This document shows, one piece after another, positions 11,125 through 28,920 of a stretch of 31,361 nucleotides of DNA. This stretch comes from a virus. Numbering within the stretch: the first letter of the stretch is position 1; each line of letters opens with the position of its first letter. The notes under the pieces are model-generated. The model ran no database searches. It was not told the DNA's origin and was given only the letters and a program-made list of their open reading frames with translations. A program made the translations under genes and the position numbers. The stretch covers positions 1-31,361 of IMG/VR virus record IMGVR_UViG_3300012936_000087; one strand, given 5' to 3'.

Positions 11125-12600
11125 ATGGCTGACGAAATATACATAAACATTGGTTCAACTTTTCAACAACCTTATCAAGGTCAACGACCAGCCAATGCAC
11201 AAGAACCAAATATAAGGAATATTCAACAACCGAATATTAGAGATGCTCAGCAACCTTATCCTTTTGCATATAGAAATCCTTTTATATACGGAAACCCTGT
11301 AAACGCACAACAACCTAATATAAGGAATGCAAGACAACCTTTTACTTATAATAGAACTGGACAAACTCCATTTACTTATCAACACCAGTCACCTTTTACA
11401 TATAGGAATCCTGTAAGCGCACAAGAGAATAATCCTAAAAATGCACAACAACCATACCCATATATTGCAAATGGACAACAACCAAGTAATGCACAGCAAC
11501 CATATCCTTATCAAGCAACTGGACAACAACCAAACATAAGGGATAGGCAATCTCCATATACATACAACTACAGGTCACCAAACACATACATTTATAATAA
11601 ACCTGTACAAAGTCCTTATATTGGTCAAAGACAAACACAGATTCAGGGCCCATACATTTATACGAGTCGTACGCCTATATTTGAATCAGGAGATGTCTAC
11701 AGAGTACCAACCCCAGCTCAAAAACAAGGGCCTCATACTGGCCCCCAAACTTACAGTTTTCAGGCAAATGCTGTTGCTTCTCGGTCACCTTTTAGTACAA
11801 CACAAATCACGAGGACACCTACAATTTATCAGACAGGACAGTTATTTGGATTAATCACAATAAACTATCCATCATATCAGATTCAAACTGAACAGGAATA
11901 TAGATATTCTTTACAGAATGTTTCTAGACAGGTAGCTCAGGCAACATACACCAATCTCCAACAACCTGTTATAACTTATAACAATATTGGTGATGCAAGA
12001 CAACCTTATCCTGCCAATATACAACAACCTAATATAAGGGATATTCAAGAACCTCATACTTACGACCATAGGTCTCCGTTCACTTATGAGAGACAAGGTC
12101 GTTCACCATTTACATATAGACACCCATTCACATATGCAAGACAAGGTCGTACACCCTTTACATATCAGATACAAAGTCCATTTACATATCAAAACCCTGT
12201 GAGTGGACAGGAACCTAATATTAGAGGCGCACAACAACCGTATCCATATATTGCATCTGGCCAAACTCCGTTTACATACGACCATAGGTCACCTTTTACA
12301 TATCAAAATAATGTAAACGCACAACAACCTCTTACAACTCAGGGTCAAACACCTTTCACTTATAATTACAGGTCACCGTTTTTATACAACCATAGGTCAC
12401 CATTTATAATTCAACAAAACTATCCAACAACTAGAGAAATAGGCCCACATGCAAAAGTTAAAGGAGTATTTGTAAATAATGCTGGTTCAGTAAGTAAAGT
12501 TGATGAAGTATATGTGAATGCACCTCAAGGCCCACAACCTTCGGGTGTGGAAAAGATTCACCAATCTGTGCCGAATGCACAGTTCTTGAAAGGAAACTAA
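11125..12600 (+). CDS. Gln/Pro/Tyr-rich 8/10-residue repeat protein, copy A
   Basis: A 491-residue protein starting two bases after the upstream stop. Most of it consists of units with the core [Q/R]-x-P-[F/Y/N]-x-[Y/R], such as QQPNIRDA, QQPYPYIANG, RSPFTYNY and QTPFTYQH. The units have 8 or 10 residues, so two make an 18-residue (54-base) period, best kept in the last third. A less regular stretch (about 165-290) separates two repeat blocks. The last ~50 residues are non-repetitive (GPHAKVKGVFVNNAG...VDEVYVNAPQG). No signal peptide, membrane segment or catalytic motif is visible. Two relatives lie at 19007 and 20030. Its place among fibre genes suggests a virion fibre component; the fold and function are unknown to me. 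Confidence 0.75.
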   Translation: MADEIYINIGSTFQQPYQGQRPANAQEPNIRNIQQPNIRDAQQPYPFAYRNPFIYGNPVNAQQPNIRNARQPFTYNRTGQTPFTYQHQSPFTYRNPVSAQENNPKNAQQPYPYIANGQQPSNAQQPYPYQATGQQPNIRDRQSPYTYNYRSPNTYIYNKPVQSPYIGQRQTQIQGPYIYTSRTPIFESGDVYRVPTPAQKQGPHTGPQTYSFQANAVASRSPFSTTQITRTPTIYQTGQLFGLITINYPSYQIQTEQEYRYSLQNVSRQVAQATYTNLQQPVITYNNIGDARQPYPANIQQPNIRDIQEPHTYDHRSPFTYERQGRSPFTYRHPFTYARQGRTPFTYQIQSPFTYQNPVSGQEPNIRGAQQPYPYIASGQTPFTYDHRSPFTYQNNVNAQQPLTTQGQTPFTYNYRSPFLYNHRSPFIIQQNYPTTREIGPHAKVKGVFVNNAGSVSKVDEVYVNAPQGPQPSGVEKIHQSVPNAQFLKGN

Positions 12601-12613
12601 CCTAAATAGTATT

Positions 12614-12949
12614 ATGGCCATAATAGCAAACTTATATATCGACCAAGGAACAGATTTCAGTATTACTGTAGATTGTACAGATAGTGCTGGTGAGGTTTTA
12701 GACCTTACTGGATACACTTCAGCTGCACAAATAAGAAAAACATATAGTTCTTCTACTGTATCTGCAACTTTTGCTACAACTATAAATGCAAGTGCTGGAC
12801 AGGTGACTTTGACACTTACAGATACACAAACAAGTGGATTAGAAAGTGGTAGGTATGTTTATGACCTAAATATAACTAAGACTTCGACCTCAGAAACAAC
12901 CCGTGTTGTTGAAGGTCAAGCAATCTTAACCCCAGGCGTGACGAGGTAA
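12614..12949 (+). CDS. Small beta-sandwich virion protein (hypothetical)
   Basis: A 111-residue protein beginning MAIIANLYIDQGTDFSITVD, followed by 'GEVLDLTGYTSAAQIRK' and ending 'GRYVYDLNITKTS...VVEGQAILTPGVTR'. This pattern resembles the Ig-like N-terminal domain of baseplate-upper-protein (BppU-type) and related phage fibre proteins. It is followed two bases later by the 72-residue gene. It is probably a small baseplate or fibre accessory protein; the family call is by pattern only. Confidence 0.65.
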   Translation: MAIIANLYIDQGTDFSITVDCTDSAGEVLDLTGYTSAAQIRKTYSSSTVSATFATTINASAGQVTLTLTDTQTSGLESGRYVYDLNITKTSTSETTRVVEGQAILTPGVTR

Positions 12950-12951
12950 TT

Positions 12952-13170
12952 ATGGCAAATATTAAAGCAAGAGTTCTACAAGGAAACCAAATCAGAGCAA
13001 AACAGGTTGCAATTGGAAACTCTACTACAGTTCAGGCAGATTTATCACAAAAGTCAATCAATGAACTTTTAGATGTCAACGCATCAGAAACCGACAAAGG
13101 TTTACTCAATTATAATCAGGCCACCGATAAGTGGGAAACAACCAATACTATAGACGGTGGAACCTTCTGA
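12952..13170 (+). CDS. Small fibre-associated protein ending in IDGGTF
   Basis: A 72-residue protein beginning MANIKARVLQGNQIRAKQVA, with a middle segment SINELLDVNASETDKGLLNY like the 'disc' segments of marine phage fibres. Its last six residues, IDGGTF, are also the last six of the proteins ending at 15283 and 16893, so this is probably a conserved tail-module C-terminus and not chance. Spacing is two bases from the upstream stop. It is likely a small fibre or adaptor protein; its exact role is unknown. Confidence 0.7.
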   Translation: MANIKARVLQGNQIRAKQVAIGNSTTVQADLSQKSINELLDVNASETDKGLLNYNQATDKWETTNTIDGGTF

Positions 13171-13696
13171 TTTAATCGAGTATCAGTTAGACCTTCCAAC
13201 GATACCCGATAATCTAATCTTTAATACAGTATCAGACATTCAAAATAACTGTGAGGTTATTTACGATGCACATATGTATAAGACATACAAGGCACCTCAA
13301 GAATTGTATGATTGGTTGCACCCTCATATGGGAGATATTCTTAAATTTCATTTACAAGATACCATGCAAGTTAGATATCAGGTCATGACAGAACAATTAC
13401 CTATTCATAAAGATTATGATTCAAGAGGTGTCTATAAAGTTTTAAATTATCATATCACTACAGGTGGTGATAATGTATATACTAGGTGGTGGGATATGCC
13501 CGAAGATGCAAAATTAATATTTGCACACGGAGCTTTTGATTATCACATGGGTGACCATTACGACCAGTCTAAAAAAATATATGAAACTCTCATACCTACA
13601 AAAAAATGGCATATGTTAACAGTAAATGTTCCACATGATATAGGATATATCACCAGTCCAAGAATCGGACTTAGATTATGGAACAATTGGCTGTAA
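13157..13696 (+). CDS. Putative 2OG-Fe(II) oxygenase (Asp/Asn hydroxylase-like)
   Basis: A 179-residue protein with the spacing of a 2-oxoglutarate/Fe(II) dioxygenase: His84-x-Asp86 in LPIHKDYDSRG, then VLNYHITTGGDN, a WW pair near residue 111, a distal His160 (VPHDIGY) and Arg169/Arg173 (PRIGLRLW) that could bind 2-oxoglutarate. These enzymes hydroxylate side chains, nucleobases or small molecules. The start is uncertain: GTG 13157 lies inside the end of the previous gene and lacks a clear ribosome-binding site, while the next in-frame ATG would remove 39 residues but keep all putative ligands. It is the only enzyme-like gene inside the fibre module, which hints at a fibre-directed modification. 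The fold is inferred from motifs. Confidence 0.65.
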   Translation: MEPSDLIEYQLDLPTIPDNLIFNTVSDIQNNCEVIYDAHMYKTYKAPQELYDWLHPHMGDILKFHLQDTMQVRYQVMTEQLPIHKDYDSRGVYKVLNYHITTGGDNVYTRWWDMPEDAKLIFAHGAFDYHMGDHYDQSKKIYETLIPTKKWHMLTVNVPHDIGYITSPRIGLRLWNNWL

Positions 13697-13701
13697 GATA
13701 G

Positions 13702-13709
13702 TATAAATA
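13702..13709 (+). promoter_or_regulatory. T4-type late promoter box (TATAAATA)
   Basis: A perfect TATAAATA lies at the start of the 150-base gap between the oxygenase-like gene and the fibre gene at 13847. It would give a leader of about 130 bases, long for a T4-like late transcript. Confidence 0.6.
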
Positions 13710-13731
13710 CCTATATCAATCAAGGTGACAT

Positions 13732-13766
13732 TCAGTGAGTCACGACCCACATTGTGAGTGGACTGA
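13732..13766 (+). other. Imperfect stem-loop in the long leader of the 13847 fibre gene
   Basis: TCAGT (13732-13736) can pair with ACTGA (13762-13766), and inside it CCAC (13747-13750) with GTGG (13758-13761) around a 7-base loop, leaving a 10-base bulge on the 5' side. This is in the 150-base non-coding gap; the rest of the gap holds the late promoter, an AAAAGCTTTT palindrome (13802-13811) and the hairpin over the ribosome-binding site. No RNA family is recognised. Confidence 0.25.
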
Positions 13767-13825
13767 TTTATAATGTTCTTTCTCGGATAGTGAAGAGAAA
13801 TAAAAGCTTTTAATAAACTAAATTA

Positions 13826-13842
13826 TATTCCTAGGAGGAATA
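13826..13842 (+). promoter_or_regulatory. Ribosome-binding site inside a perfect 7-bp hairpin
   Basis: TATTCCT (13826-13832) and AGGAATA (13836-13842) are perfect complements separated by AGG. The strong Shine-Dalgarno AGGAGGAA (13833-13840) for ATG 13847 lies in the loop and right arm, so folding would mask it. Folding is inferred from sequence only. Confidence 0.5.
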
Positions 13843-13846
13843 AAAA

Positions 13847-15283
13847 ATGTCAACAGTAATTCAAATTAAGCGAAGTACAGGTGTCTCCGCTCCTACTGTT
13901 AGTAATCTTGCAGAAGGGGAATTGGCATATGTACAGGACAGGTCTAATTCGGGTGCTGGTGCAAAACTATACATTGAGTCAGTAGATTCAGATAACTCTA
14001 CTGCCCTGATTCACGCAATCGGTGGTAAGTATTATACTGATATACTTGCTGGTTCTACGGCGACTCCTGCCGACTTTAAAGTTGGTAATGGTTCGTCTAC
14101 AGGTGGTACTTTAAAACTTATGGAAGATACCGATAACGGTTCTCATTCTGTAGGATTAAAAGCACCTAATAGTGTTGGGAGTGATGTGGTATTCACATTG
14201 CCTGGCGCAGATGGTTCTGCAAACCAAGTAATCCAAACAGACGGTTCAGGGAACTTATCCTTCGCAACTTCAACTTCAACGGTTGCTGGTGCTTCAGATA
14301 CAGATATTTCAAGTGCATCATCAGGACATATCCTAATTCATGATGGTTCAGATTCATTTGATAACAAACCTATATCAGGAGACGCAACCCTTGCAGCTTC
14401 AGGTGCATTAACTATTGCAAATGACGCTGTAGACGCAGATAAATTGGCTGCAAGTGCAGTCGTTATCGGTTCTTTATCAGCAGGAATGTTGGTGACTGAA
14501 TCCGAGGGAATCGGTTCAAACGATAATGATACCACAGTTGCAACCTCAGCTGCAATTAAAGATTATGTCGATACACAGCTCACTGCTCAAGACTTGGACT
14601 TCCAAGCAGATTCAGGTGGTGCTTTATCAATCGATTTAGATAGTGAAACTCTTTCAATAGTTGGTACAGCCAACGAAATTGAAACAAGTGGTTCAGGTAA
14701 TACCGTCACAATCGGTCTTCCTGATAATGTCACAATCGCAGGAAACTTGACAGTTAGTGGTACAACTACAACTGTTAACTCAACTACTGTTTCTATTGCA
14801 GACCCAGTTTTCGAAATTGGTGACGATAGTTCAGACGACAACCTAGACAGAGGTATTAAATTTAAATACAACAGTTCAGGTGCAAAAGTTGGTTTCTTTG
14901 GATTTGACGACTCTACTGGAAAGTTCGTTGCATTAGGTTCTGCAACAGACAGTTCTTCAACATTCTCAGGTACAGCACTTGGTGCCGTATTCGGTGGATT
15001 AGAAGCAACAGGTCTTGCACTTTCAGGGTCTATCACTTCTATCGATGGTTCAGCTCCTACAGCAGGTCAGTTGTTAATTGGTCACGGTACTAACGGTGAC
15101 TTTGCAGCTGGTACTTTAACAGCAGGTGAAGGTATTGATGTCACAAATGCAGACGGAAGTATTACAATAGCGGGAGAAGATGCAACTACTACTAATAAGG
15201 GTATTGCAAGTTTCGCTAGTGCAAACTTCACTGTATCAAGTGGTGCAGTCACAATCACTGCTATTGACGGTGGTACATTTTAA
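13847..15283 (+). CDS. Tail-fibre protein with IxIKRS N-terminal module
   Basis: A 478-residue protein. The N-terminus ([20 protein letters not shown], then [10 protein letters not shown]) is the particle-proximal module widely seen in marine phage fibres, and it is shared with the 15307 gene (EIKFKRSS...LALGEIAIN). The body is Gly/Ser/Thr/Asp-rich with shaft-like repeats. A conserved block at about 325-365 reads [15 protein letters not shown]...DRGIKFKY...GFFGFDD; the related block in the 16893 fibre reads DALLELGNG...DAGLVIERG...FIGWDES. The protein ends ITAIDGGTF. It has a strong AGGAGGAA ribosome-binding site that may be masked by a hairpin, and its own upstream late promoter, so it likely begins a transcription unit. 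Probably a trimeric fibre; the receptor is unknown. Confidence 0.8.
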
Positions 15284-15306
15284 TTAATCGTCATTAGGAG
15301 GAAACC

Positions 15307-16131
15307 ATGGCAACAGAGATAAAATTTAAAAGGAGTTCGACACAGAACGATGTCCCCGCAGTCAGTGATTTGGCTTTGGGTGAAATTGCAATCAACACCT
15401 ATCACGGTAGAATGTATACCGAGAAAAACGATGGGTCAGCTGCAATTTCTGAAATCGGTTCTAATCCAGCTTCTCTAACAATCAATGATGCTATTACATT
15501 TCCTACCAGTGATGGTACAAGTGGACAAGCCCTAGTCACAAATGGTTCGGGAACCTTATCGTTCTCAACGGTTGGTGGTACAGGTTTAACAATTTTTACA
15601 TATTCTATTTCAGGTAATACAACTTCTATTACAGGTAATGACGATAACAACAATTCTTTATCCTACACAGCAGGAACAGAACAAGTTTATCTTAACGGTG
15701 TAAAATTAATTAGTGGTGGTTCAGATTATACTACTACTAACTCCACAACTATCACTTTAGCAGCAAATGCGATAAGTGGTGATGTCGTACAAGTAGTTGC
15801 CTATACAAGTGCAGACTTAGTACAAGGATACTACACGGCTTCATCATTCTCTGCAACAACGGCTGACCAAGTGTTATCGTCAAATGGCATTGCAAATAAA
15901 GCAATCAAATATGTCATTTGTGCAACTCACGCTTCTGCTGGAACTCATGCAGCGGAGGTTTTATTAATCAACAATGGTTCTAACTCATATTTCGTCCAGT
16001 ACGGTGATGTGTTTAGTTCCAGTTCGTTATTCTCGTTGAATTCAGATATTAACTCAGGTAATATGAGACTTCTCATTACACCAGCTAATACGAATACAAC
16101 TGTGGATACATTCCAAATAAGACATTCATAG
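15307..16131 (+). CDS. Tail-fibre protein
   Basis: A 274-residue protein with an AGGAGGAA ribosome-binding site. Modules in order: the N-terminal module at about 1-40 (IKFKRSSTQNDVPAVSDLAL, then GEIAIN); a short shaft (about 50-90); the 'QVYLNGVKL...DYTTTN...GDVVQVVAYT' domain (about 115-165) shared with the 9831 gene; and a C-terminal domain (about 200-274: KAIKYVICATHAS...AEVLLINNGS...QYGDVF...NMRLLITP). The C-terminal domain is clearly paralogous to the whole second half of the next gene. It is probably a short fibre whose C-terminal domain is exposed. The architecture is plain; its target is not. Confidence 0.75.
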   Translation: MATEIKFKRSSTQNDVPAVSDLALGEIAINTYHGRMYTEKNDGSAAISEIGSNPASLTINDAITFPTSDGTSGQALVTNGSGTLSFSTVGGTGLTIFTYSISGNTTSITGNDDNNNSLSYTAGTEQVYLNGVKLISGGSDYTTTNSTTITLAANAISGDVVQVVAYTSADLVQGYYTASSFSATTADQVLSSNGIANKAIKYVICATHASAGTHAAEVLLINNGSNSYFVQYGDVFSSSSLFSLNSDINSGNMRLLITPANTNTTVDTFQIRHS

Positions 16132-16142
16132 GAGGATAGGAC

Positions 16143-16553
16143 ATGGCTTTAAGTAAATCATTTAAACTTGCAGAACTTATCCGACATATCGAATACGATT
16201 CGAGTGATGATGTAATCAAAACAAGTAAAAGAACAGAGGATAAAAACAAAAAAAGAGGTTCAGATACTAAAACTGCAACCACTGAGTTTAACCTTGATAC
16301 TTTTGCACATGCAGACTTTAGAGCTGCAAGATATATCGTTGCAATGTCTAGAGGAACAGATTTCCATTCAACGGAAATCATGTTGGTTCACGATGGAACT
16401 ACGGTTTCATTAACTCAATATGGTGTTTTGCAAGACAATACACTTGCCACATTTGATGCAGACATCAGTGGTGACAATGTTAGACTTAAATGCACTCCAT
16501 CTTCGGCAACTTCGACCACAATCAAGTTTGACCGAACATTGGTAGACGCATAA
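16143..16553 (+). CDS. Small fibre-tip-like protein, paralogue of the preceding C-terminal domain
   Basis: A 136-residue protein with a GGAGG ribosome-binding site. Residues about 55-136 (FRAARYIVAMSRG...STEIMLVHDGT...LTQYGV...ADISGDNVRLKCTP) align by eye with the C-terminal domain of the 15307 fibre, position by position. The N-terminal ~50 residues are charged (EDKNKKRGSDTKT). It could be a free-standing receptor-binding tip or a spare domain for recombination. It is followed by an intrinsic terminator. Confidence 0.7.
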   Translation: MALSKSFKLAELIRHIEYDSSDDVIKTSKRTEDKNKKRGSDTKTATTEFNLDTFAHADFRAARYIVAMSRGTDFHSTEIMLVHDGTTVSLTQYGVLQDNTLATFDADISGDNVRLKCTPSSATSTTIKFDRTLVDA

Positions 16554-16560
16554 AGACTTA

Positions 16561-16593
16561 AATAAGGGGGATTTATTCCCCCTTTTCTTTTTT
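16561..16593 (+). terminator. Rho-independent terminator
   Basis: GGGGG (16566-16570) pairs with CCCCC (16578-16582) across a 7-base loop, extended by AA/TT, and is followed by TTTTCTTTTTT. It lies just after the 16553 stop and ahead of the next promoter-like box. It is the only convincing intrinsic terminator I see in the window. Confidence 0.85.
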
Positions 16594-16610
16594 ATTGAGG
16601 AGTTCTTTCT

Positions 16611-16618
16611 CATAAATA
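16611..16618 (+). promoter_or_regulatory. Late-promoter-like box (CATAAATA)
   Basis: CATAAATA differs from the T4 late consensus by one base. It follows the terminator and sits 44 bases before ATG 16663, so it probably restarts transcription for the second half of the fibre module. Confidence 0.45.
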
Positions 16619-16662
16619 AATGGTAATACATTCTAAAACTTTAATTTAGGGTACGGAGAAAC

Positions 16663-16893
16663 ATGGCAGATACTAAAAATTTCAGAGTAGAACATGGAAT
16701 CAATATCGGAACAACCGAAATAGTTAACTCCAGTGGTAAAGTACAAGCAACTGCAATATCTTCATTAGACACAGACGATTTAACAGAAGGAACGAACAAA
16801 TACTTTACTACGACTAGGGTGAATAACCATTTAGCAGATTCAGGTTCAGCAAAGACAATTAATAATGCTACAATAGATGGAGGAACATTCTAG
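16663..16893 (+). CDS. Short fibre N-terminal-module protein ending in IDGGTF
   Basis: A 76-residue protein (ribosome-binding site CGGAG). Its start, NFRVEHGINIGTTEIVNSSG, matches the start of the next gene (NFKIKNGLTVGTTEVIDSSG), and it contains one degenerate copy of the fibre repeat (LTEGTNKYFTTTRVNNHLAD). It ends in IDGGTF. The DNA encoding that DGG carries GGAGG at 16879-16883, correctly spaced to act as the ribosome-binding site of the next gene (GTG 16893). It may be an adaptor between baseplate and fibre, or the remains of a longer fibre. Confidence 0.7.
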   Translation: MADTKNFRVEHGINIGTTEIVNSSGKVQATAISSLDTDDLTEGTNKYFTTTRVNNHLADSGSAKTINNATIDGGTF

Positions 16894-18986
16894 TGGCCGC
16901 ACAGAATTTTAAAATCAAAAACGGTTTGACGGTTGGAACTACAGAAGTTATTGATAGTTCAGGTGATTTGACTGCTGCAGCTTTTGGAACTGCAGCTAAC
17001 GAGGCAATCGATGACCAAGTAAATACACTTTTAACAGCGGGAACAGGAGTAAGTTTATCTTACGATGATGCAGCTGGTACATTAACAATCACAGGTAATG
17101 TTGGAGATATTACAGGAGTAAATGCTGGTGCTGGTTTGACTGGTACTGCAACATCAGGTGATGCAACATTAAATGTTGGTGCTGGAACAGGTATTACTGT
17201 AAATGCAGATGACATTGCAGTTAATATGGGTGCATTTGATACAGACAACTTATCAGAAGGTTCTTCAAACTTATATTTTACAAACGAAAGAGTTGACGAT
17301 AGAGTAAATTCACTATTCACAGCTGGTACAGGTATATCATTAACATATGACGATGCAGCTAATACTTTGACCATTGACGGTCAAGTTGGAGACATAACAG
17401 GAGTCACAGCTGGTACAAACTTAAGTGGAGGAGGTACTTCGGGTACAGTCACACTTAATGTAGAACAACAATTAAACAACACAACTGCACCATACTATCA
17501 CAATGTAGTAGTGACAGTTAGTGGTGGTAAATTCTTATTTGACGGACAAACTTCTTCTCAATCTTTGAGATTAATGCCAAGTATCGTCTATAGATTTGAC
17601 CAATCAGACAGTTCAAACGGTTCACACCCATTAAGATTCTCTGAGTCCGAAGACGGAACAGAGATGTCAGATGGATACACAATTTATAACAAAGTAGGTA
17701 CGCCAGGCTCAAGTGGTGCATATACAGAAGTTGCATTCGACCAAGAAGCACCTTCAATTATGTACTTCTACTGTTCAAATCACAGTGGAATGGGTAATTC
17801 AGTTTATCTTGGAGACGAAAGTGGAGATATCGCAGGAGTCACAGCTGGAGACGGTTTATCAGGTGGTGGTACATCAGGAACAGTATCACTTGCATTAGAT
17901 TTAAATGAATTAACAGCTGCAACAGTAGACCCTTCTGCAGATAGTATTGCAATCATAGACGGTGGTTCTTCAAATGTAAGTAGAAAAGAATCTATAGCTG
18001 ACCTTGCAACGATGCAAGCTGGAGACGGACTAAGTGCATCAAGTGGTGCATTTGCAGTAAATGTAGATGACAGTTCAATAGAAACAAACTCCGATTCGTT
18101 AAGAGTTAAAGCATTAGGTATTACAAATGCAATGTTAGCTGGTTCAATCACAAATGCAAAATTAGCTAATTCAAGTATCACAATCGCAGGAGCTTCAACT
18201 GCATTAGGTGGAACTGTACTTGCAGACACCGATGCATTATCAGAAGGTTCTTCAAACTTATATTTCACAAACGAAAGAGTTGATGATAGAGTTGCATCTC
18301 TTATTGTTGGTGGTTCAAATATCACTGCAACTTATGATGATGCAGCGGGAACATTGACACTTGCTGGTTCGGCTGCATATGGTGACGCAGATGCAAGAGG
18401 TGCTATCTCAGTCACAGATTCGGGTGGAGACGGTTCACTTAACTACGATAATTCAAGTGGTGTTATTACATATGTCGGCCCAAATTCTGCAGAAGTAAGA
18501 GCTCATTTAAGTGCTGGAACTGGTGTATCATATTCAGGTGGTGAGTTTAGTATCGGTCAGGCAGTTGCAACAAACAGTAATGTTCAGTTTGGAAACTTAA
18601 CACTATCAGGTGACTTAACAGTTAACGGAACAACGACAACCGTATCTACTACTAATACAGTAGTTTCAGATGCATTATTAGAACTAGGAAATGGAACATC
18701 AGGTTCACCTTCAAATGACGCAGGTTTAGTTATTGAAAGAGGAAGTTCAGATAATGTGTTCATAGGTTGGGACGAAAGTGCAGATGCAATCACATTCGGT
18801 ACAGGTTCATTTACAGGTGCATCTACAGGTAATTTAACAATTACACCAAGTGCAGTAAACACTGGTGCAGTGACTATAACAAATGCAACAAACAGTGGTG
18901 GTACTGCAAGGAATGTTTATCAATCAACTTCTGCACCTACAAGTTCAGACGGTGCAGTTGGTGACTTATGGATTTTATACTCTTAA
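16893..18986 (+). CDS. Long tail-fibre protein with internal cupredoxin-like domain
   Basis: A 697-residue protein starting at GTG 16893, which shares its G with the previous stop codon and has GGAGG nine bases upstream. An N-terminal module (AAQNFKIKNGLTVGTTEV) is followed by a shaft containing repeats of LSEGSSNLYFTNERVDDRV plus 'AGTGISLTYDDAANTLTI'. Residues about 230-305 hold a cupredoxin-like block with His245 (SHPLRFSES), Cys294, His297 and Met300 (YFYCSNHSGMGN), mirroring the protein at the window's left end. Near the C-terminus are the 'ALLELGNG...GLVIERG...IGWDES' block and a final SAPTSSDGAVGDLWILYS, which resembles the end of the 9831 fibre. It is likely a main side or tail fibre. 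Confidence 0.8.
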   Translation: MAAQNFKIKNGLTVGTTEVIDSSGDLTAAAFGTAANEAIDDQVNTLLTAGTGVSLSYDDAAGTLTITGNVGDITGVNAGAGLTGTATSGDATLNVGAGTGITVNADDIAVNMGAFDTDNLSEGSSNLYFTNERVDDRVNSLFTAGTGISLTYDDAANTLTIDGQVGDITGVTAGTNLSGGGTSGTVTLNVEQQLNNTTAPYYHNVVVTVSGGKFLFDGQTSSQSLRLMPSIVYRFDQSDSSNGSHPLRFSESEDGTEMSDGYTIYNKVGTPGSSGAYTEVAFDQEAPSIMYFYCSNHSGMGNSVYLGDESGDIAGVTAGDGLSGGGTSGTVSLALDLNELTAATVDPSADSIAIIDGGSSNVSRKESIADLATMQAGDGLSASSGAFAVNVDDSSIETNSDSLRVKALGITNAMLAGSITNAKLANSSITIAGASTALGGTVLADTDALSEGSSNLYFTNERVDDRVASLIVGGSNITATYDDAAGTLTLAGSAAYGDADARGAISVTDSGGDGSLNYDNSSGVITYVGPNSAEVRAHLSAGTGVSYSGGEFSIGQAVATNSNVQFGNLTLSGDLTVNGTTTTVSTTNTVVSDALLELGNGTSGSPSNDAGLVIERGSSDNVFIGWDESADAITFGTGSFTGASTGNLTITPSAVNTGAVTITNATNSGGTARNVYQSTSAPTSSDGAVGDLWILYS

Positions 18987-19006
18987 TTGAGTGAGTGAGG
19001 AAATAA

Positions 19007-20008
19007 ATGGCGTCAGGTTCACAGAAGGTTAAAACCCCTTCGGGTTGGAATGCAACTCAAGGTGCTTGGGTAAAAACAGGCAGTTCGACTTGGAAGGCAG
19101 TAGACCAAATATATCTTAAGACACCCGATGGGTGGAATAATGCGTCTGGCCAAGAAGCAACTCAATCACCATATCCTTACATTGCAAACGCACAAAATCC
19201 AGTCATAAGGAATAGACAAACTCCATATCCATATATTGCTAATGCTCAAGAACCCAATATTAGGAATAGACAGAATCCATATCCTTACATTGCAAATGCA
19301 CAGGAACCAAATATAAGAGATAAACAAGAAGCTTATCCTTACATTGCGAATGCACAAAATCCAGTTATAAGAAATAGACAAACTGCATACCCTTATCAAG
19401 CAAATGCACAGGAACCAAATATTAGGAACCGTCAAAATGCATACCCTTATCAGGCAAATGGTCAAGAACCAAATATTAGGAACCGTCAAAATGCATATCC
19501 TTATATTGCAAATGCACAGGAACCAAACATAAGGAATAGACAGAATCCATATCCTTATCAGGCAAATGCACAGGAACCGAATATTAGGAATGCACAACAA
19601 CCATATCCGTATATTGCAACTGGTCAAGAACCGAATATTCGTTCTGCACAACAACCGTATCCGTATATTGCAAATGGTCAGGAACCTAATATTCGTTCTG
19701 CACAACAACCGTATCCGTACATTGCATCTGCACAACAACCGAATATAAGAAGTTATCAGTCACCGTTTACATATAACTATAGGTCACCCTTTACATACAA
19801 CTATAGGTCACCTTTTACATATAACTACAGGTCACCTTTTACATATCAAGCACCAGCAAGACAACCATTCATTGCAAGTGCAAGACAACCTTTTACATAT
19901 CAGGCACCTGCGAGACAACCTTTTACATATCAGAGTCCCTTTACATATATTGCAAGGACTCCTTATCAGTTGCCAGGCGGTGGTAGCCCAGGCCATCAAC
20001 AGAAATAA
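19007..20008 (+). CDS. Gln/Pro/Tyr-rich 8/10-residue repeat protein, copy B
   Basis: A 333-residue protein. The first ~45 residues are non-repetitive with two 'KTPSGW/KTPDGW' motifs (KVKTPSGWNATQGAW...AVDQIYLKTPDGWN), probably a small attachment domain. Residues about 50-320 are the most regular repeat array in the window: QEPNIRNR (8) alternating with QNPYPYIANA (10), about ten 18-residue periods. It then switches to 8-residue units (RSPFTYNY), including tandem 24-base copies from 19757, and to RQPFTYQAPA. It ends GGGSPGHQQK. A GAGG ribosome-binding site precedes the ATG. The fixed Pro and aromatic positions suggest a repetitive rod or solenoid. The function is unknown; fibre context suggests a virion role. 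Confidence 0.75.
   Translation: MASGSQKVKTPSGWNATQGAWVKTGSSTWKAVDQIYLKTPDGWNNASGQEATQSPYPYIANAQNPVIRNRQTPYPYIANAQEPNIRNRQNPYPYIANAQEPNIRDKQEAYPYIANAQNPVIRNRQTAYPYQANAQEPNIRNRQNAYPYQANGQEPNIRNRQNAYPYIANAQEPNIRNRQNPYPYQANAQEPNIRNAQQPYPYIATGQEPNIRSAQQPYPYIANGQEPNIRSAQQPYPYIASAQQPNIRSYQSPFTYNYRSPFTYNYRSPFTYNYRSPFTYQAPARQPFIASARQPFTYQAPARQPFTYQSPFTYIARTPYQLPGGGSPGHQQK
19757..19846 (+). repeat. 24-base tandem repeat inside repeat protein B
   Basis: Four consecutive near-identical 24-base units encode [Q/R]SPFTYNY (19757-19780, 19781-19804, 19805-19828, 19829 on), the last merging into the next repeat type. They differ only at a few third positions, so the array probably grew recently by slippage or unequal recombination and keeps the reading frame whatever the copy number. 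Confidence 0.75.
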
Positions 20009-20029
20009 TGGAGAGTATAGAGTAGAACA

Positions 20030-20896
20030 ATGGCACAATTACCTTACATTGCACAAGCTAGACAACCTGTTTCGGCACAGAACCCGTTCACTTATCCAGC
20101 GAACGCACAGAATCCGTTTACCTATAATGCACAGAATCCATTTACATATCCTGCGAATGCTCAACAACCGAATATTAGAAGTGCTCAGCAACCTACAATT
20201 AAGAATGCTCAACAACCTACAATTAAGAATGCAAGACAACCTAACACATATAACTATAGGTCTCCATTCACATATAACAGAACAGGTCAAACACCTTTTA
20301 CATATAATTACAGAAGTCCATTCACATATAATAGAACAGGTAGAACACCTTTTACATATAACTATAGGTCACCGTTCACTTATAATAGAACAGGACAATC
20401 ACCTTTCACATACGACCATAGGTCTCCATTCACTTACGAAAGACAGGGACAAACTCCTGATACCTATTCATATAGAAGTCCTTCAACATATCAGAGACAA
20501 GGTCAAACGCCTACGACATATGACCATAGGTCACCATTCACTTATGAAAGACAGGGACAAACACCTACAACATATGACCACAGGTCACCTTTTACCTATG
20601 AGAGACAGGGTCAACAACCTTCTACATACGACCATAGGTCACCTTCCACATATCCAAATACAGGTGGAACACCAGTGACATATGACCACAGGTCACCGTC
20701 AACATATGCAAGACAAGGACAAACACCTGATACTTATTCATATAGAAGTCCTTCAACATACCAAAGAACAGGTCAACAACCTTCTACATACGACCATAGA
20801 AGTCCTTCGACATATGCAAGGCAAGGTAGAACACCAGTTCCAAGATGGGACGGTGTACTATCACAACAGTGGCCAGGCTCACCAATAACCTCTTAA
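20030..20896 (+). CDS. Pro/Tyr/Thr-rich 8/10-residue repeat protein, copy C
   Basis: A 288-residue protein beginning MAQLPYIAQARQPVSA. After a short AQNPFTY/AQQPTIK block (to about residue 70) it becomes a regular array of 18-residue periods: RSPFTYNRTG (10) with QTPFTYNY (8), drifting to RSPFTYERQG with QTPTTYDH and to RSPSTYQRQG with QTPDTYSY. It ends with the non-repetitive PRWDGVLSQQWPGSPITS. It follows copy B by 21 bases. It lacks the KTPSGW head of copy B, so B and C may have arisen by splitting or duplication of one repeat gene. The many Ser/Thr next to Pro are possible modification sites. The function is unknown. Confidence 0.75.
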   Translation: MAQLPYIAQARQPVSAQNPFTYPANAQNPFTYNAQNPFTYPANAQQPNIRSAQQPTIKNAQQPTIKNARQPNTYNYRSPFTYNRTGQTPFTYNYRSPFTYNRTGRTPFTYNYRSPFTYNRTGQSPFTYDHRSPFTYERQGQTPDTYSYRSPSTYQRQGQTPTTYDHRSPFTYERQGQTPTTYDHRSPFTYERQGQQPSTYDHRSPSTYPNTGGTPVTYDHRSPSTYARQGQTPDTYSYRSPSTYQRTGQQPSTYDHRSPSTYARQGRTPVPRWDGVLSQQWPGSPITS

Positions 20897-20917: not shown

Positions 20918-22495
20918 ATGTTAGAAGCAATTAACACACTTGAGAAAGCACGCAACTTCGATTTTACTAAGAGAAGGTCTTTACATGAGAGACATTTAGG
21001 TACTGTAAATTTAGGTAGTTATGATTACAAAAATAGAGAATCAGAACAATCTAAAAATGCATTAGAAGTATTTGAATATGTCATGTCACAATGTGGGCCT
21101 ATTCGTTTAGTTCCATGGGAAAATATCAAAGAACACATAAACGAAAATAGAACTATGGGATTTGGTCAATTGAACCATAATTCTTATCAATATAACAGAT
21201 ATCTACATCTTGGTTGGACTGAAAAATTAAGACCCGACCACCCTATCGGAGGTGGTTCAATGGACTTCATGAATGTAGATGGAGAGTATCAAAAATTATC
21301 TTCTGTTAGTGACGACCCCGATTGTGATGAATTAAATGACGAAGAAGAAAATTCTATTTGTGCATGTTATTACCATTCTGCAAAAGCACATTGGTTAGTC
21401 AATAGTGTACAGAAAGAAGGACTAAGACAACCAGTTCAAGGACATACACATAGTCCTACTGGTTCAGAACCAGTTGATTACAGACTTACTATACACCCAG
21501 GCTCTATAAGAAGTAAAGTATTAGAGACAATGGACGAACCACATTTTCTAACATTAGTCACTGATTATGTAAATGCATATTCAGATATACCAGCATTAAG
21601 TTGTCAAGAGATATTAGATTACTTTGAGGGTTTATTAAAAGAACCAAATGAAGGGACTCTATCTGCCATATGGGTAGGAGAAGGAAAAATAGAATGGTCT
21701 TTATCAGCAGTAGGTGGTACAGATTTCCGAAACGAAGTTTTTGATTTTAATAGAAGAGTTTCAAAATTATGTAAGAAGAAACCAGTAAACATTTATCTCG
21801 GTTATGATTCTTCTCATGGAGAAGTTTATGAGGTTGCAGAAAAGTCCATATACAATGCAATAGAAAAATCAAAAAGTGGTGGACATGGAGCTGAGTTCTT
21901 TAATGATTACAAAGTAGAAGTTAAGAAACTTGACATAGCAACAATACCTGAATATAATAGAGATTATGCTAATCAATCAACTGAATTTACATACAGTAGA
22001 TTTTTAATCCCCTATCTTGAGAACTATGAGGGATTTAGTTATTTCATAGACGATGATTACATATGGGAACATACACCCATGTCATTATTTTATTTCTTAG
22101 ACCCTGAACATGCAGTTGCATGTGTACAATATGATTTTAAAAATCATGAAGAAACTAAATTTAATGGAGAGAAGAATATATCTTATCCTAAAAAGTTATG
22201 GTCTAGTATGATGATATTTAATAACGGACATGAAGATTGTAAAAAATTAACACCCGAAGTTGTCAATACACAAACTGGAAAATATCTACATCAGTTTGAA
22301 TGGACAAATCAAATAAGTAAGATACCTCATAACAAAATATGTACTGAGGGATACGATACTTTGAAAAAATCACACCATGCAGTTCACTATACAAGAGGTG
22401 GGCCATGGATAAAAGACATGGATTGTTCTAACATAAATATGTTGAACTACTATGAAAAACATAAAATGAGTAAACTTAAAAAGAAGGTTTACTAA
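20918..22495 (+). CDS. ParB-like domain fused to a GT8-like glycosyltransferase
   Basis: A 525-residue protein. Residues about 55-200 look like a ParB/sulfiredoxin-type domain (RLVPWENIKEHI; HWLVNSVQKEGLRQPVQGH; YRLTIHPGSIR). From about residue 288 a GT-A glycosyltransferase of GT8 type begins: VNIYLGYDSSHGEVYEVAEK at the nucleotide-binding strand, STEFTYSRFLIPYLENYEGF, the metal-binding DDD at 378-380 (FIDDDYIW), a substrate-loop region (KKLWSSMMIFNNGH), and the C-terminal HYTRGGPW (490-497) expected for metal/diphosphate binding. It should transfer a sugar from a nucleotide-sugar to an unknown acceptor. It directly follows the repeat proteins and opens the accessory block. The glycosyltransferase half is a confident call; the ParB-like half is tentative. 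Confidence 0.7.
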   Translation: MLEAINTLEKARNFDFTKRRSLHERHLGTVNLGSYDYKNRESEQSKNALEVFEYVMSQCGPIRLVPWENIKEHINENRTMGFGQLNHNSYQYNRYLHLGWTEKLRPDHPIGGGSMDFMNVDGEYQKLSSVSDDPDCDELNDEEENSICACYYHSAKAHWLVNSVQKEGLRQPVQGHTHSPTGSEPVDYRLTIHPGSIRSKVLETMDEPHFLTLVTDYVNAYSDIPALSCQEILDYFEGLLKEPNEGTLSAIWVGEGKIEWSLSAVGGTDFRNEVFDFNRRVSKLCKKKPVNIYLGYDSSHGEVYEVAEKSIYNAIEKSKSGGHGAEFFNDYKVEVKKLDIATIPEYNRDYANQSTEFTYSRFLIPYLENYEGFSYFIDDDYIWEHTPMSLFYFLDPEHAVACVQYDFKNHEETKFNGEKNISYPKKLWSSMMIFNNGHEDCKKLTPEVVNTQTGKYLHQFEWTNQISKIPHNKICTEGYDTLKKSHHAVHYTRGGPWIKDMDCSNINMLNYYEKHKMSKLKKKVY

Positions 22496-22525: not shown

Positions 22526-23077
22526 ATGAATGCATTAATTTATTGTGAAAACGGAAATCTTTTCGTTAGAAAACCAAACGGACTAGAATGGAGACATGAA
22601 CAAGTCGATAGACCTGAACTAGGATTTGAATACGAAGTTCTTATCTATGATGATATAGAATATAAAATTGAAAAATGGAATACCGAACTTCCCATGGAAG
22701 AACAAGATAGACTTCCTCTATCTGAATCAGATAAAGATTCCATTGAAGCATACATTGAAAATTGTGAACCACCACAGGGTGTAAATTTAAACAATCAATT
22801 TATTAGTAGAATTGCAAATGTTGTACATAGTAATGAAGAAACTCAAGCTATAAAGTATGGATTTGATAATATAGTAGAGGTGTTAATTGCATCTAGAGAA
22901 GGTTCAGCACACCCACATAGGTCAAATGCACGAAGAGTTTTAGAATACATAGACGCATTAGCAAATGTTGCAGAAGAAGTGTATAGAGAAATTTCAATTA
23001 CTAGAGAAGATACTCTTAAACCTTTAGAGGATTATCTCATGCAATTACCACCACCTAATGATGCAATAAGAAGGTGA
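22526..23077 (+). CDS. Conserved hypothetical protein
   Basis: A 183-residue acidic protein (MNALIYCENGNLFVRKPNGL...). The N-terminal ~55 residues look beta-rich, and the rest is helical with many Glu (EEVYREISITREDTLKPLED). I recognise no catalytic motif, signal peptide or membrane segment. Its TGA overlaps the GTG start of the 2OG oxygenase that follows, so the two are probably translationally coupled. The GGAG ribosome-binding site lies in the loop of a weak ATAAT/ATTAT stem (22512-22527). Confidence 0.65.
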   Translation: MNALIYCENGNLFVRKPNGLEWRHEQVDRPELGFEYEVLIYDDIEYKIEKWNTELPMEEQDRLPLSESDKDSIEAYIENCEPPQGVNLNNQFISRIANVVHSNEETQAIKYGFDNIVEVLIASREGSAHPHRSNARRVLEYIDALANVAEEVYREISITREDTLKPLEDYLMQLPPPNDAIRR

Positions 23078-23862
23078 ACAAAGGGACTCCAAAATGGGCC
23101 TTCAACGGGAAAGGACTTCCAAAAATAGATTCATATAATAAGTGGACTGTTAATTCACTTAATGTAAATTATATCGAAAAACCTTTTTATATCGAAGAAC
23201 TACCACTTGCAGAAAATGTCTATGTCATAGATGATTATTTAGCACCGAATCTGCATAGAGCATTAGACCACCACTTACAACATTGTTCGTGGCAAAAAAC
23301 TAATGAAGTAAAACAAGACGGTAGATGGTGGAGTAGTAGAGGTGGTTTACCAAATCATTCATTATGGGGAGCTGCATTCATGGGCCCAAATGGTGAAGAA
23401 GGATATTTGAACGGCCCGAGTGGTTATCCTAATTATTTAATTAAATGGTTAAATAGAAAACTTCAAACTGATTTTGGATTTGAATGGGTTAGATTTCAAT
23501 ATGCTGGTGCAAACTCACAATTACATGGACAACAAGGAACATGTCATAGTGATTGTCAAGACTATGACGATTGGAATCTTTCTTTCTTATATTATACCAA
23601 TCAGTTTTGGAATCCAAACTGGGGTGGTAGATTGAGATTTTATGATACGAATATTAAAGGTGGTACATTAGAAGACATGGACGAATATGAAATAGGTGCA
23701 GTAGATTTTGTACCTAATAGATTACTCATGTTTGACGGTAGAATACAACATGGAGCAGAGGCTCCTTCCGAAGATGCAAAATATATAGATAGAAAATCAA
23801 TAGTAATTAGAGGTGACGAATGTGTACTTCTAAACAAAGAAGATAGATATGCCAACCATTGA
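23074..23862 (+). CDS. 2OG-Fe(II) oxygenase, prolyl-4-hydroxylase-like
   Basis: A 262-residue protein with a double-stranded beta-helix layout: entry strand VYVIDDYLAP (about 49-58), iron ligands His158-x-Asp160 (GTCHSDCQDYDDWNLSFLYY), the characteristic 'WNPNWGGRLRFYD' strand (about 179-191), 'FVPNRLLMFDG' and distal His226 (RIQHGAEAP), then Arg240 (DRKSIVIRG) as the likely 2-oxoglutarate anchor. The order and spacing match the P4Hc-type phage family. It would use O2 and 2-oxoglutarate to hydroxylate a substrate, possibly Pro or another side chain; the substrate is not identifiable. It starts at GTG 23074, overlapping the upstream TGA. It overlaps the next gene by 14 bases. Confidence 0.8.
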   Translation: MNKGTPKWAFNGKGLPKIDSYNKWTVNSLNVNYIEKPFYIEELPLAENVYVIDDYLAPNLHRALDHHLQHCSWQKTNEVKQDGRWWSSRGGLPNHSLWGAAFMGPNGEEGYLNGPSGYPNYLIKWLNRKLQTDFGFEWVRFQYAGANSQLHGQQGTCHSDCQDYDDWNLSFLYYTNQFWNPNWGGRLRFYDTNIKGGTLEDMDEYEIGAVDFVPNRLLMFDGRIQHGAEAPSEDAKYIDRKSIVIRGDECVLLNKEDRYANH

Positions 23863-24760: not shown

Positions 24761-25459
24761 ATGTCAGTTAGATTATTGTTCCCTACTCTTTTATTCAAAT
24801 ATGATTTGATAGAAGAGGGAATTTTGACAAGTGAATATCTTGACCAGTTGCGTCAAGACATGGACGCAATGCGAAAAAAAGACCCTACAGGTAGAAAAGT
24901 TTCGAATGCATACACAGGTTGGCAATCAAATGACGGTTGTAATCAAAGACCTATTTGGCAGAAAGCTATAAGGGCAATTAAAGATAAAGTAAACCATGAA
25001 GTATTACCATTTCACCATGTAGACACTTCTAAAATTCAATTGGACATGGGTAATATGTGGGCAAATATAAATGACAAAGGTGCATGGAATACTCCACATA
25101 GACATAATGGTTGTTGGTATAGTGGTGCATTTTATGTTAATGCAGAAGGTGATGAAGGTGATATTATATTTACAGATAAGAATGAACAAGTATTATATCA
25201 TTCTCCCATAAATACAAAAGTCGAAGACCACCACCGTGAAACCCCTACAACTGGAACTTTATTATTATTTCCTAGTGGACTATTACACATGGTCGCCCCT
25301 AATCAAACTGATAAAGATAGATATAGTGTTGCATTCAATATGAATTCTAAATGGCTCACAGATGAATTCATGTTCGACCCTAAAATCGATGACGATTCTA
25401 ATGAGAAAGTAAGGGGTTGGAATCTTTTTGATGTGGAAGGTGGTTATTTGAAGAGGTAG
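24761..25459 (+). CDS. Putative 2OG-Fe(II) oxygenase (TIGR02466-like)
   Basis: A 232-residue protein beginning SVRLLFPTLLFKYDL. The core has MWANINDKGAWNTPHRHNGC, then WYSGAFYVNAEGDEGDIIFTD (about 99-138), LLLFPSGLLHMVAPN (about 167-181) and DRYSVAFNMNS (about 186-196). This matches the TIGR02466-type putative 2OG-Fe(II) oxygenases common in T4-like marine phages. Candidate iron ligands are His113/His115 and His176, with Arg187 for 2-oxoglutarate. The proximal motif is HxH here instead of the classical HxD, so the second ligand is uncertain. It closes the accessory block just before the conserved neck genes. Confidence 0.7.
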   Translation: MSVRLLFPTLLFKYDLIEEGILTSEYLDQLRQDMDAMRKKDPTGRKVSNAYTGWQSNDGCNQRPIWQKAIRAIKDKVNHEVLPFHHVDTSKIQLDMGNMWANINDKGAWNTPHRHNGCWYSGAFYVNAEGDEGDIIFTDKNEQVLYHSPINTKVEDHHRETPTTGTLLLFPSGLLHMVAPNQTDKDRYSVAFNMNSKWLTDEFMFDPKIDDDSNEKVRGWNLFDVEGGYLKR

Positions 25460-28506: not shown

Positions 28507-28920
28507 ATGGCAAAAGAAATAGACCAAAAGTTAGATAATCTTCTAGATATCAACTCTGATATCAAACAAGAAACCCGATTAGTTAAATTACCTGATAGGG
28601 ACAAGAATATCGAATCAGACTACAGATATGCTAGAGAGAACCTCTACGACCTCGTAGAACGCGGTCAGGACGCTATAGACGGCATATTAGAACTATCCAA
28701 GGAGACAGAACACCCTCGTGCATATGAGGTTGCTGGACAACTCATAAAGACTGTATCCGAAACTGCAGAAAAGTTAATCGACATACAGAAGAAGTTGAAG
28801 GACTTAGAGAAAGAAGATAGTTCAGTAAGAACTCAACACAATCACTTATATGTCGGTTCGACAAGTGAATTGCAGAAGTTCTTAAAAAAGGAGTCTAAGA
28901 AAGATGGAAATTCAACCTAA
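28507..28920 (+). CDS. 16: Terminase small subunit gp16-like
   Basis: A 137-residue, largely helical protein: LDNLLDINSDI, then DYRYARENLYDLVERGQDA, IDGILELSKETEHPRAYEVA and GQLIKTVSETAEKLIDIQKK. This is the central coiled-coil oligomerisation region of T4-type small terminases, which form rings that regulate gp17 ATPase and nuclease during packaging. T4 gp16 is 164 residues; the N-terminal DNA-binding part is short here. The end overlaps the next gene by 17 bases. The position before gp17 supports the call even though another gene lies between them. Confidence 0.85.
   Translation: MAKEIDQKLDNLLDINSDIKQETRLVKLPDRDKNIESDYRYARENLYDLVERGQDAIDGILELSKETEHPRAYEVAGQLIKTVSETAEKLIDIQKKLKDLEKEDSSVRTQHNHLYVGSTSELQKFLKKESKKDGNST

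What the first reader, a model, noticed from the sequence alone, without database searches (positions are those of the whole stretch)
11125..20896. Three proteins built from an alternating 8/10-residue repeat (18-residue, 54-base period)
Seen: genes at 11125, 19007 and 20030 share units with the core [Q/R]-x-P-[F/Y/N]-x-[Y/R]. Long and short units alternate (8: QEPNIRNR, QTPTTYDH; 10: QNPYPYIANA, RSPFTYERQG), giving an 18-residue super-period. The Pro is almost invariant in the third position of each unit; the next positions vary between aromatic (PFTY, PYPY) and PNIR types. I do not recognise a named domain with this pattern. Inference: an extended rod or beta-solenoid with one rung per 18 residues, possibly an expandable adhesive or spacer fibre. 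The copies lie on both sides of the main fibre genes.
Basis: seen in the sequence. Interest (0 to 1): 0.75.

Follow-up and report, generated by a model that had tools for sequence, protein, structure and literature searches.

The report
Two-protein antiparallel repeat zipper, phage appendage
In a group of marine T4-like phages, two neighbouring genes encode long repeat proteins whose repeat patterns are exact mirror images and chemically complementary. They appear to zip together head-to-tail, like the two strands of a double strand, into a long fibre of adjustable length that carries an exchangeable tip.

Summary
The repeats are real, but the 8/10 alternation (18-residue period) is regular only in genes 19007 and 20030. 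Spacings between successive [QR]xP motifs are even in 3,037 of 3,039 cases of 12 or less. Read backwards, the unit-length series of the 20030 protein (B) matches that of the 19007 protein (A): 27 of 29-30 motif positions coincide in antiparallel register. This holds in 40 non-redundant A/B pairs: mean match 94%, against 51% for non-cognate partners and 54% in parallel register. The true partner ranks first in 40/40, although arms range from about 190 to 560 residues. B's last residue always lies opposite A residue 31-33. Facing units are complementary: a TY-type unit faces a non-TY unit, TY never faces TY among 1,020 six- and eight-residue pairs, and Thr faces Ile at 607 of 660 eight-residue centres. 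The 11125 protein is the same zipper folded as one hairpin; a diverged RP-repeat family shows it independently. Best reading: a long antiparallel two-stranded beta ribbon (A:B heterodimer or hairpin) with a base module and exchangeable tip, probably a tail appendage. A single-chain 18-residue solenoid does not explain the mirror. 3D form, stoichiometry and presence in virions are untested.

The parts
19007..19156 (+). Protein A (P0002), N-terminal base module MASGSQKVKTPSGWN..TWKAVDQIYLKTPDGW
   Evidence: Conserved in 33 aligned relatives; the only partly confident part of the AF2 model (blocks at pLDDT 79 and 69); homologous module starts the single-chain RP-type proteins
19163..19957 (+). 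Protein A repeat arm: 8/10 units, then four 8-residue units, then 6+4/8/6+4/6/8
   Evidence: Unit ladder pairs with protein B in reverse register S=318; 27 ticks coincide
19958..20005 (+). Protein A tip tail (YQLPGGGSPGHQQK) projecting about 15 residues past B's N-terminus; replaced by a Hint domain or another globular domain in relatives
20030..20827 (+). Protein B (P0003) repeat arm, antiparallel complementary partner of A
   Evidence: cognate partner ranks 1st in 40/40 pairs
20828..20893 (+). Protein B C-terminal base cap RTPVPRWDGVLSQQWPGSPITS, opposite the A base module
   Evidence: R, W, D, W, P invariant in 33 relatives; last residue always opposite A residue 31-33
11125..12600 (+). P0001: the same zipper as one hairpin chain (two separate genes in many relatives)
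   Evidence: Self-mirror S=448, 16 coincidences of 19-23 against at most 10 in 300 permutations; split a/b gene pairs in 14 relatives
11200..11607 (+). P0001 outgoing arm (residues 26-161)
   Evidence: Ladder
11620..11985 (+). P0001 tip region (about residues 166-287), little or no mirrored repeat
   Evidence: in split relatives the first gene carries a non-repeat C-terminal domain here
11986..12393 (+). P0001 returning arm (residues 288-423)
   Evidence: Ladder
12445..12597 (+). P0001 C-terminal base module AKVKGVFVNNAG..KVDEVYVNAP..IHQSVPNAQF
   Evidence: Conserved at the C-terminus in relatives; resembles the A base module by eye (not tested by alignment)
20918..22495 (+). Downstream gene with a glycosyltransferase-like C-terminal half; conserved neighbour (possible modifier, inferred)
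   Evidence: phrog_28018; relatives annotated as glycosyltransferase or nucleotide-diphospho-sugar transferase; 71/71 loci have a repeat ORF within 0.8 kb upstream
23074..23862 (+). 2OG-Fe(II) oxygenase, conserved neighbour (possible prolyl hydroxylase of the repeats, inferred)
   Evidence: PF13640 E=1.9e-7; the only PDB profile hit is a prolyl 4-hydroxylase, 6t8m, E=2.5e-4; 53/53 loci linked
24761..25459 (+). Second 2OG-Fe(II) oxygenase (2OG-FeII_Oxy_5), conserved neighbour
   Evidence: PF13759 E=3.8e-20; synteny

Best explanation
Proteins A (19007) and B (20030) are the two strands of one fibre. They pair antiparallel, residue by residue, over about 265 residues as a two-stranded beta ribbon. 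A's N-terminal module and B's C-terminal cap meet at the base; A's C-terminal tail and B's N-terminus meet at the tip. Register is held in three ways: the unit-length series (4/6/8/10/12 residues) are matched, side chains alternate strictly by residue parity, and a two-class complementarity makes a TY-type unit (xPFTYxx) face an I/N/P-type unit (xPNIRxx, xPYIANx, xPVSA, xPYPYIANA). The 11125 protein makes the same ribbon as one hairpin with its tip in the middle. Fibre length can change only when both strands gain or lose the same units at mirrored places. Tips are exchangeable (Gly-rich tail, Hint domain, other globular domains). Shown by sequence: register, mirror matching, complementarity, coupled length change, tip modularity. 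Inferred: beta ribbon, tail-appendage role, base attached to the virion and tip facing the host. Not determined: straight or wound ribbon, and number of ribbons per fibre (a trimer, giving six strands as in the T4 gp37 needle, is my leading guess).
For: Even spacing 3,037:2 and negative autocorrelation at every odd lag up to 59. Residues sort by ladder parity in both strands: Pro 98.7% on one face, Phe and Tyr 99.3% on the other, Ile 93% against Val/Leu 3%. Window A:B 27 ticks at S=318. 40 non-redundant pairs: 94% matched antiparallel, 54% parallel, 51% non-cognate, 39% unit-permuted; cognate rank 1 in 40/40; tick counts correlate r=0.95; base register A residue 31-33. A:A and B:B reach only 54% and 53%. 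RP-type single chains: 19-20 of 20-21 left-arm ticks mirrored in 15 of 16, base register 31/33. P0001-type split pairs: cognate rank 1 in 12/14 and 2 in 2/14. Facing-unit complementarity. Coupled indels between close relatives: both proteins change by the same 18, 26, 36 or 30 residues. Both partners occur together wherever the locus has room: 210 loci, and the 13 apparent exceptions were a start-motif variant or single-chain types. Position between a tail-fibre-like gene and neck genes, conserved synteny.
Against: AF2 of A alone and of B alone is low-confidence, as expected if the partner is missing, but it gives no positive structural support. Some close relatives differ by 44 residues in B with no matching change in A (L022/L024, L051/L052), possibly collapsed repeats in metagenome assemblies. 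Two pairs match poorly (L270 18 of 29; L276 24 of 36-50), and some single-chain P0001 relatives (L151, L340, L349, L359) show no significant mirror. No virion proteomics or structure exists, and the tail role rests on gene position.
Confidence: 0.83

Rival explanations
1. Each protein is an independent single-chain beta-solenoid with one rung per 18 residues.
For: 8/10 alternation in two proteins; the AF2 monomer of B shows weak strands at 18-residue spacing.
Against: Does not explain mirror matching with a separate protein or facing complementarity. Many relatives have irregular series (6,6,8,8,8,8; 8,6,4), and neighbouring units do not match in length. Foldseek found nothing significant.
Confidence: 0.04
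2. A and B do pair antiparallel, but the two-stranded ribbon is wound into a helical tube, kinking at each QxP, instead of running straight.
For: The QxP positions coincide on both strands, as kinks shared by a bending ribbon would; weak 18-residue solenoid-like strands in the AF2 model of B; lag-2 and lag-3 unit-length matching exceeds shuffles.
Against: Lag-2 and lag-3 matching is also expected from tandem duplication; irregular unit series stack poorly.
Confidence: 0.35
3. A parallel triple-stranded beta-helix like the T4 gp5 spike (octapeptide VxGxxxxx), formed by homotrimers of each protein.
For: Eight-residue units, even parity, phage tail context; gp5 repeat described in PMC4576200.
Against: Homotrimers give no reason for A and B to mirror each other; parallel-register matching is at background; the VxG motif is absent.
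Confidence: 0.03
4. Low-complexity disordered spacers whose mirror symmetry is a by-product of periodic arrays or of DNA-level duplication.
For: Low-complexity composition; low pLDDT; strong tandem duplication.
Against: Permutation, non-cognate and A:A/B:B controls all fall to 39-54%; no DNA rearrangement reverses N-to-C order while keeping codons; 3,037:2 parity bias; TY:TY never faces in 6- and 8-residue pairs.
Confidence: 0.03
5. Add-on hypothesis: the adjacent 2OG-Fe(II) oxygenase(s) hydroxylate the invariant Pro, and the adjacent glycosyltransferase-like protein may glycosylate it.
For: The cassette directly follows the repeat genes in 71/71 and 53/53 loci and (without the glycosyltransferase) after the RP-type repeat in L158. 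The best PDB match of the first oxygenase is a prolyl 4-hydroxylase, and the presumed metal ligands H158, D160 and H226 are invariant.
Against: All loci come from one virus group, so linkage may be inherited synteny; relatives of the oxygenase in cyanophages lie in the replication region without such repeats; the match to 6t8m is weak.
Confidence: 0.3

Closest known systems
T4 long tail fibre gp37 receptor-binding tip (six-stranded antiparallel beta needle; PMC9659904)
   Same: Phage fibre in which chains run out and back as antiparallel beta strands with a receptor-binding end
   Different: gp37 is a homotrimer of one protein (own knowledge); it has no QxP units and no two-gene complementary arms; no sequence similarity was found between our proteins and any PDB chain
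T4 gp5 / VgrG triple-stranded beta-helix (VxGxxxxx; PMC4576200)
   Same: Eight-residue units, in/out alternation, phage tail protein, adjustable length
   Different: Parallel intertwined homotrimer; different motif; no mirrored partner protein
Spectrin alpha/beta antiparallel heterodimer (own knowledge)
   Same: Two long repeat proteins from separate genes associate side by side antiparallel with repeats in register
   Different: Triple-helical repeats of about 106 residues, not 4-12-residue beta units; no residue-level unit complementarity
Left-handed beta-helix proteins (LpxA/LpxD/GlmU; nominal top Foldseek rows, E about 1, probability 0.02)
   Same: Short beta repeats of about 18 residues per turn
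   Different: No significant match; single-chain parallel coils; not mirrored
Hint/Vint (intein-like) domains
   Same: Form the tip module of some A relatives (PF14623 above cut-off in L077)
   Different: Absent from the window proteins; only an exchangeable tip

Membership tests
Single-chain beta-solenoid with 18-residue rungs | Constant rung length along the chain | tested here: not met
   Unit series irregular in P0001 and many relatives; lag-1 equality at shuffled level, lag-2 above it
Single-chain beta-solenoid with 18-residue rungs | Structural similarity to a solved solenoid | tested here: inconclusive
   Low-confidence models, no significant Foldseek match
T4 gp37-type antiparallel needle | Out-and-back antiparallel course of the two strands | tested here: met
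   Antiparallel register shown by sequence for A:B, P0001 and RP-type chains; strand conformation itself is inferred
T4 gp37-type antiparallel needle | Sequence homology to gp37 or other solved fibres | tested here: not met
   No PDB sequence hit; no PHROGs hit at E<=0.01
T4 gp37-type antiparallel needle | Three-fold oligomer with metal-binding HxH core | not testable with these tools
   No complex prediction available
gp5/VgrG triple-stranded beta-helix | VxGxxxxx repeat | tested here: not met
   Motif is [QR]xP..; Val and Gly almost confined to odd positions
Known Pfam / PHROGs / NCBIfam repeat family | Profile match above cut-off | tested here: not met
Prolyl 4-hydroxylase-like 2OG oxygenase (window 23074-23862) | 2OG-Fe(II) oxygenase domain with HxD...H metal ligands | tested here: met
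   PF13640 E=1.9e-7; H158, D160 and H226 invariant in 26 relatives
Prolyl 4-hydroxylase-like 2OG oxygenase (window 23074-23862) | Prolyl hydroxylase activity on the repeats | not testable with these tools
   Only the weak 6t8m profile hit

The most novel reading that the evidence does not exclude
A protein double strand with a pairing code: two separately encoded repeat proteins (or two arms of one chain) recognise each other antiparallel over 190-560 residues through matched unit lengths and two complementary unit classes. It builds a phage fibre whose length can be edited by adding the same word to both genes at mirrored sites, with proline-modifying enzymes encoded next door.
Probability: 0.6. 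Interest if true: 0.95.

Novelty: categorically new. Interest (0 to 1): 0.9.

Why it matters
If right, this is a protein assembly specified by sequence complementarity between two chains over hundreds of residues, readable from DNA alone. It gives a direct rule for fibre length, pairing specificity and tip placement in marine phages. It turns genes that no family library recognises into a predictable appendage, shows coordinated evolution of two genes at mirrored positions, and suggests a programmable beta-ribbon scaffold. In the sequences seen, partner prediction works without a structure: the true partner ranked first in 40 of 40 genomes.

Tried and rejected
tblastn of the repeat proteins, their end modules and the RP-type protein against about 50,000 phage records found nothing credible; low-complexity masking limits this, but the nearest cultured phage by TerL, C48C1, has no such repeats in the stretches scanned. 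A residue-by-residue covariation map did not single out facing positions, because whole unit classes covary; class-level complementarity was used instead. Literature searches for the motif, for mirrored repeats and for prolyl-hydroxylated marine phage fibres found nothing relevant. I considered and rejected chance self-symmetry of periodic arrays (permutation, non-cognate, A:A and B:B controls) and a DNA-inversion origin (inversion gives the reverse complement, not reversed codon order).
Full report
WHAT WAS CHECKED. The window is a 31.4-kb IMG/VR virus record with a T4-like late-gene order. It has large structural proteins, tail-fibre-like genes, neck genes and a gp17-type terminase (29445-31049) that matches phage C48C1 at 56% and cyanophages at 44-46%. 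The three reported ORFs exist and consist of [QR]-x-P units. The 18-residue period is strong in the 19007 protein (A) and the 20030 protein (B), but weak in the 11125 protein (P0001), whose unit lengths are irregular. No profile library recognises the proteins.

RELATIVES AND THE EVEN-NUMBER RULE. Viral-contig scans with A and B returned 80 and 65 loci. In 92 non-redundant repeat proteins the distance between successive [QR]xP motifs is 4, 6, 8, 10 or 12 in 3,037 cases and odd in 2. Residue autocorrelation is negative at every odd lag from 1 to 59. In the paired arms, residues sort by position parity: Pro 98.7% on one face, Phe and Tyr 99.3% on the other, Ile 93% on the Pro face and Val/Leu 97% on the opposite face. 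Disordered spacers have no reason to keep such parity over hundreds of residues; beta strands do. That last step is inference.

THE MIRROR. A diverged family found through L158 has a homologous N-terminal base, a different repeat (RPTSYEVTIP and similar), a central non-repeat insert and a homologous C-terminal cap. Its RP spacings read the same outward and backward around the insert; 19-20 of 20-21 left-arm positions coincide under reversal in 15 of 16 members and 16 of 21 in L321, against permutation maxima of 13-17. Applied to the window, A's unit series reversed equals B's: 27 motif positions coincide at one register. The ladder also shows 6+4 residues in A facing a 10-residue unit in B, and A's run of FTY units facing B's NIR/TIK units. 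P0001 is mirrored on itself around its non-repeat middle (16 coincidences against at most 10 in permutations).

STATISTICS. Forty A/B pairs, each sharing less than 60% of 4-mers with any other, were tested. The antiparallel match averages 94% of motifs; best parallel register 54%; non-cognate partners 51% (95th percentile 69%); permuted unit order 39%. The cognate B ranks first among 40 for every A. Motif counts correlate at r=0.95. The last residue of B falls opposite A residue 31, 32 or 33 in every case, although arms range from about 190 to 560 residues; the single-chain RP family gives the same number (31 or 33). A:A and B:B matching is only 54% and 53%. The P0001 family, split into two genes in 14 non-redundant relatives, behaves alike: the cognate ranks first in 12 and second in 2.

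PAIRING CODE. Where facing units have equal length they are complementary. For 8-residue units, TY-class (xPxTY) faces I-class in 598 of 660, with no TY:TY. The central facing residues are T:I or I:T in 607 of 660, Glu at position 1 faces His at position 7 in 245 cases, and Phe faces Arg or Ala. For 6-residue units, one partner is TY and the other is not in 302 of 360 (permutation mean 188, maximum 210), with no TY:TY. For 10-residue units, PYPY-type faces TY-type in 155 of 167. In the split P0001 family one partner is TY in 117 of 129 8-residue pairs (permutation maximum 97). In the RP family, an aromatic faces Val or Leu in 36 of 37 8-residue pairs. Either protein can carry either class, so this is a pairing relation and not merely a difference between two proteins.

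COUPLED CHANGE. Among closely related genomes whose B proteins differ in length, A usually differs by the same amount (18, 26, 36 or 30 residues). Exceptions are 44-residue differences in B alone between near-identical contigs, which may be collapsed assembly repeats. Wherever a locus has room, both partners are present: 210 loci have both, and the 13 apparent exceptions were a start-motif variant or single-chain types. DNA inversion or duplication cannot create a reversed N-to-C order of similar codons, so selection for pairing is the simplest cause.

ANATOMY. Base: A's N-terminal module with B's C-terminal RWDG..WP cap. Arms: the zipper. Tip: A's tail, 10-25 often Gly-rich residues beyond B's start, or GGG followed by a Hint domain (Vint/Hint above cut-off in L077), or other unrecognised domains in L033, L045 and L062. 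In the P0001 family the tip is the middle of the chain, or the C-terminal domain of the first gene of a split pair. The RP-type proteins look like A and B joined through the tip. The position next to tail-fibre genes suggests a tail appendage (inferred). If strands run straight, the window A:B ribbon would be about 90 nm and the family range about 60-185 nm (my arithmetic at 0.33 nm per residue); a wound ribbon would be several-fold to ten-fold shorter.

NEIGHBOURS. Downstream, a glycosyltransferase-like protein, a 183-aa protein, a 2OG-Fe(II) oxygenase, a 302-aa protein and a second 2OG oxygenase keep their order in nearly all loci. Every glycosyltransferase locus with room (71/71) and every oxygenase locus with room (53/53) has a repeat ORF just upstream. 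The first oxygenase's only PDB profile match is a prolyl 4-hydroxylase. Modification of the invariant proline is an attractive but untested idea; inherited synteny is the null.

STRUCTURE. AlphaFold2 on A and B alone gave pLDDT 43 and 46, and Foldseek found nothing significant. I could not model the complex. Pro lies on only one of the two alternating ladder classes on both strands, which fits non-hydrogen-bonded ladder positions (inference). Whether the ribbon is straight (as in the T4 gp37 needle, described as six-stranded antiparallel in PMC9659904) or wound is open; irregular unit series and absence of lag-1 length matching lean to straight.

VERDICT. The evidence points to an antiparallel, complementary two-strand repeat assembly in marine T4-like phages, not described in any source I could search. 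I call it categorically new with the caveat that a structure might show it to be an elaborate relative of known antiparallel fibre needles.

Noticed in passing
window 1-1365 and 16893-18986: Both structural proteins contain HPIRFS/HPLRFS...YYYCINHSGMGG / FYCSNHSGMG, the His...Cys-x2-His-x2-Met pattern of a type 1 copper (cupredoxin) site; no Pfam hit at E<=0.01 for the 16893 protein.
   Followed up: no
L077:5073-6368, L129:4715-5998, L153:6579-7796: Relatives of protein A end in a Hint/Vint (intein-like) domain (starting GCF, many ending VHN or AHN), placed at the tip of the zipper.
   Followed up: partly
window 23074-23862: PHROG phrog_274 is labelled 'DNA endonuclease V', and many cyanophage records copy this, but the matching protein is a 2OG-Fe(II) oxygenase by Pfam.
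   Followed up: partly
window 23849-24757: A 302-aa protein conserved between the two oxygenases has relatives in haloarchaeal tailed viruses (HF1, HRTV, HSTV; 25-34% identity); function unknown.
   Followed up: no
window 20918-22495: The glycosyltransferase-like protein has an extra N-terminal half of about 290 residues (ParB-like appearance by eye) with no Pfam match; its cultured-phage relatives match only the C-terminal half.
   Followed up: no
window 28904-29452: A small gene between the terminase subunit genes has a SAM-methyltransferase-like motif (VCVLGTGVGT) but no Pfam match.
   Followed up: no
L154:19383-20405 (phage C48C1): The nearest cultured phage has, after its tail-fibre gene, a protein ending in PAPAPTPAPAPQPEPEP dipeptide repeats, another two-residue periodic, proline-rich tail-region protein.
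   Followed up: no
L138, L153, L156: In some genomes the gene order of the pair is reversed (B before A), yet the mirror matching holds (L153 23 of 23, L138 25 of 25-26).
   Followed up: partly
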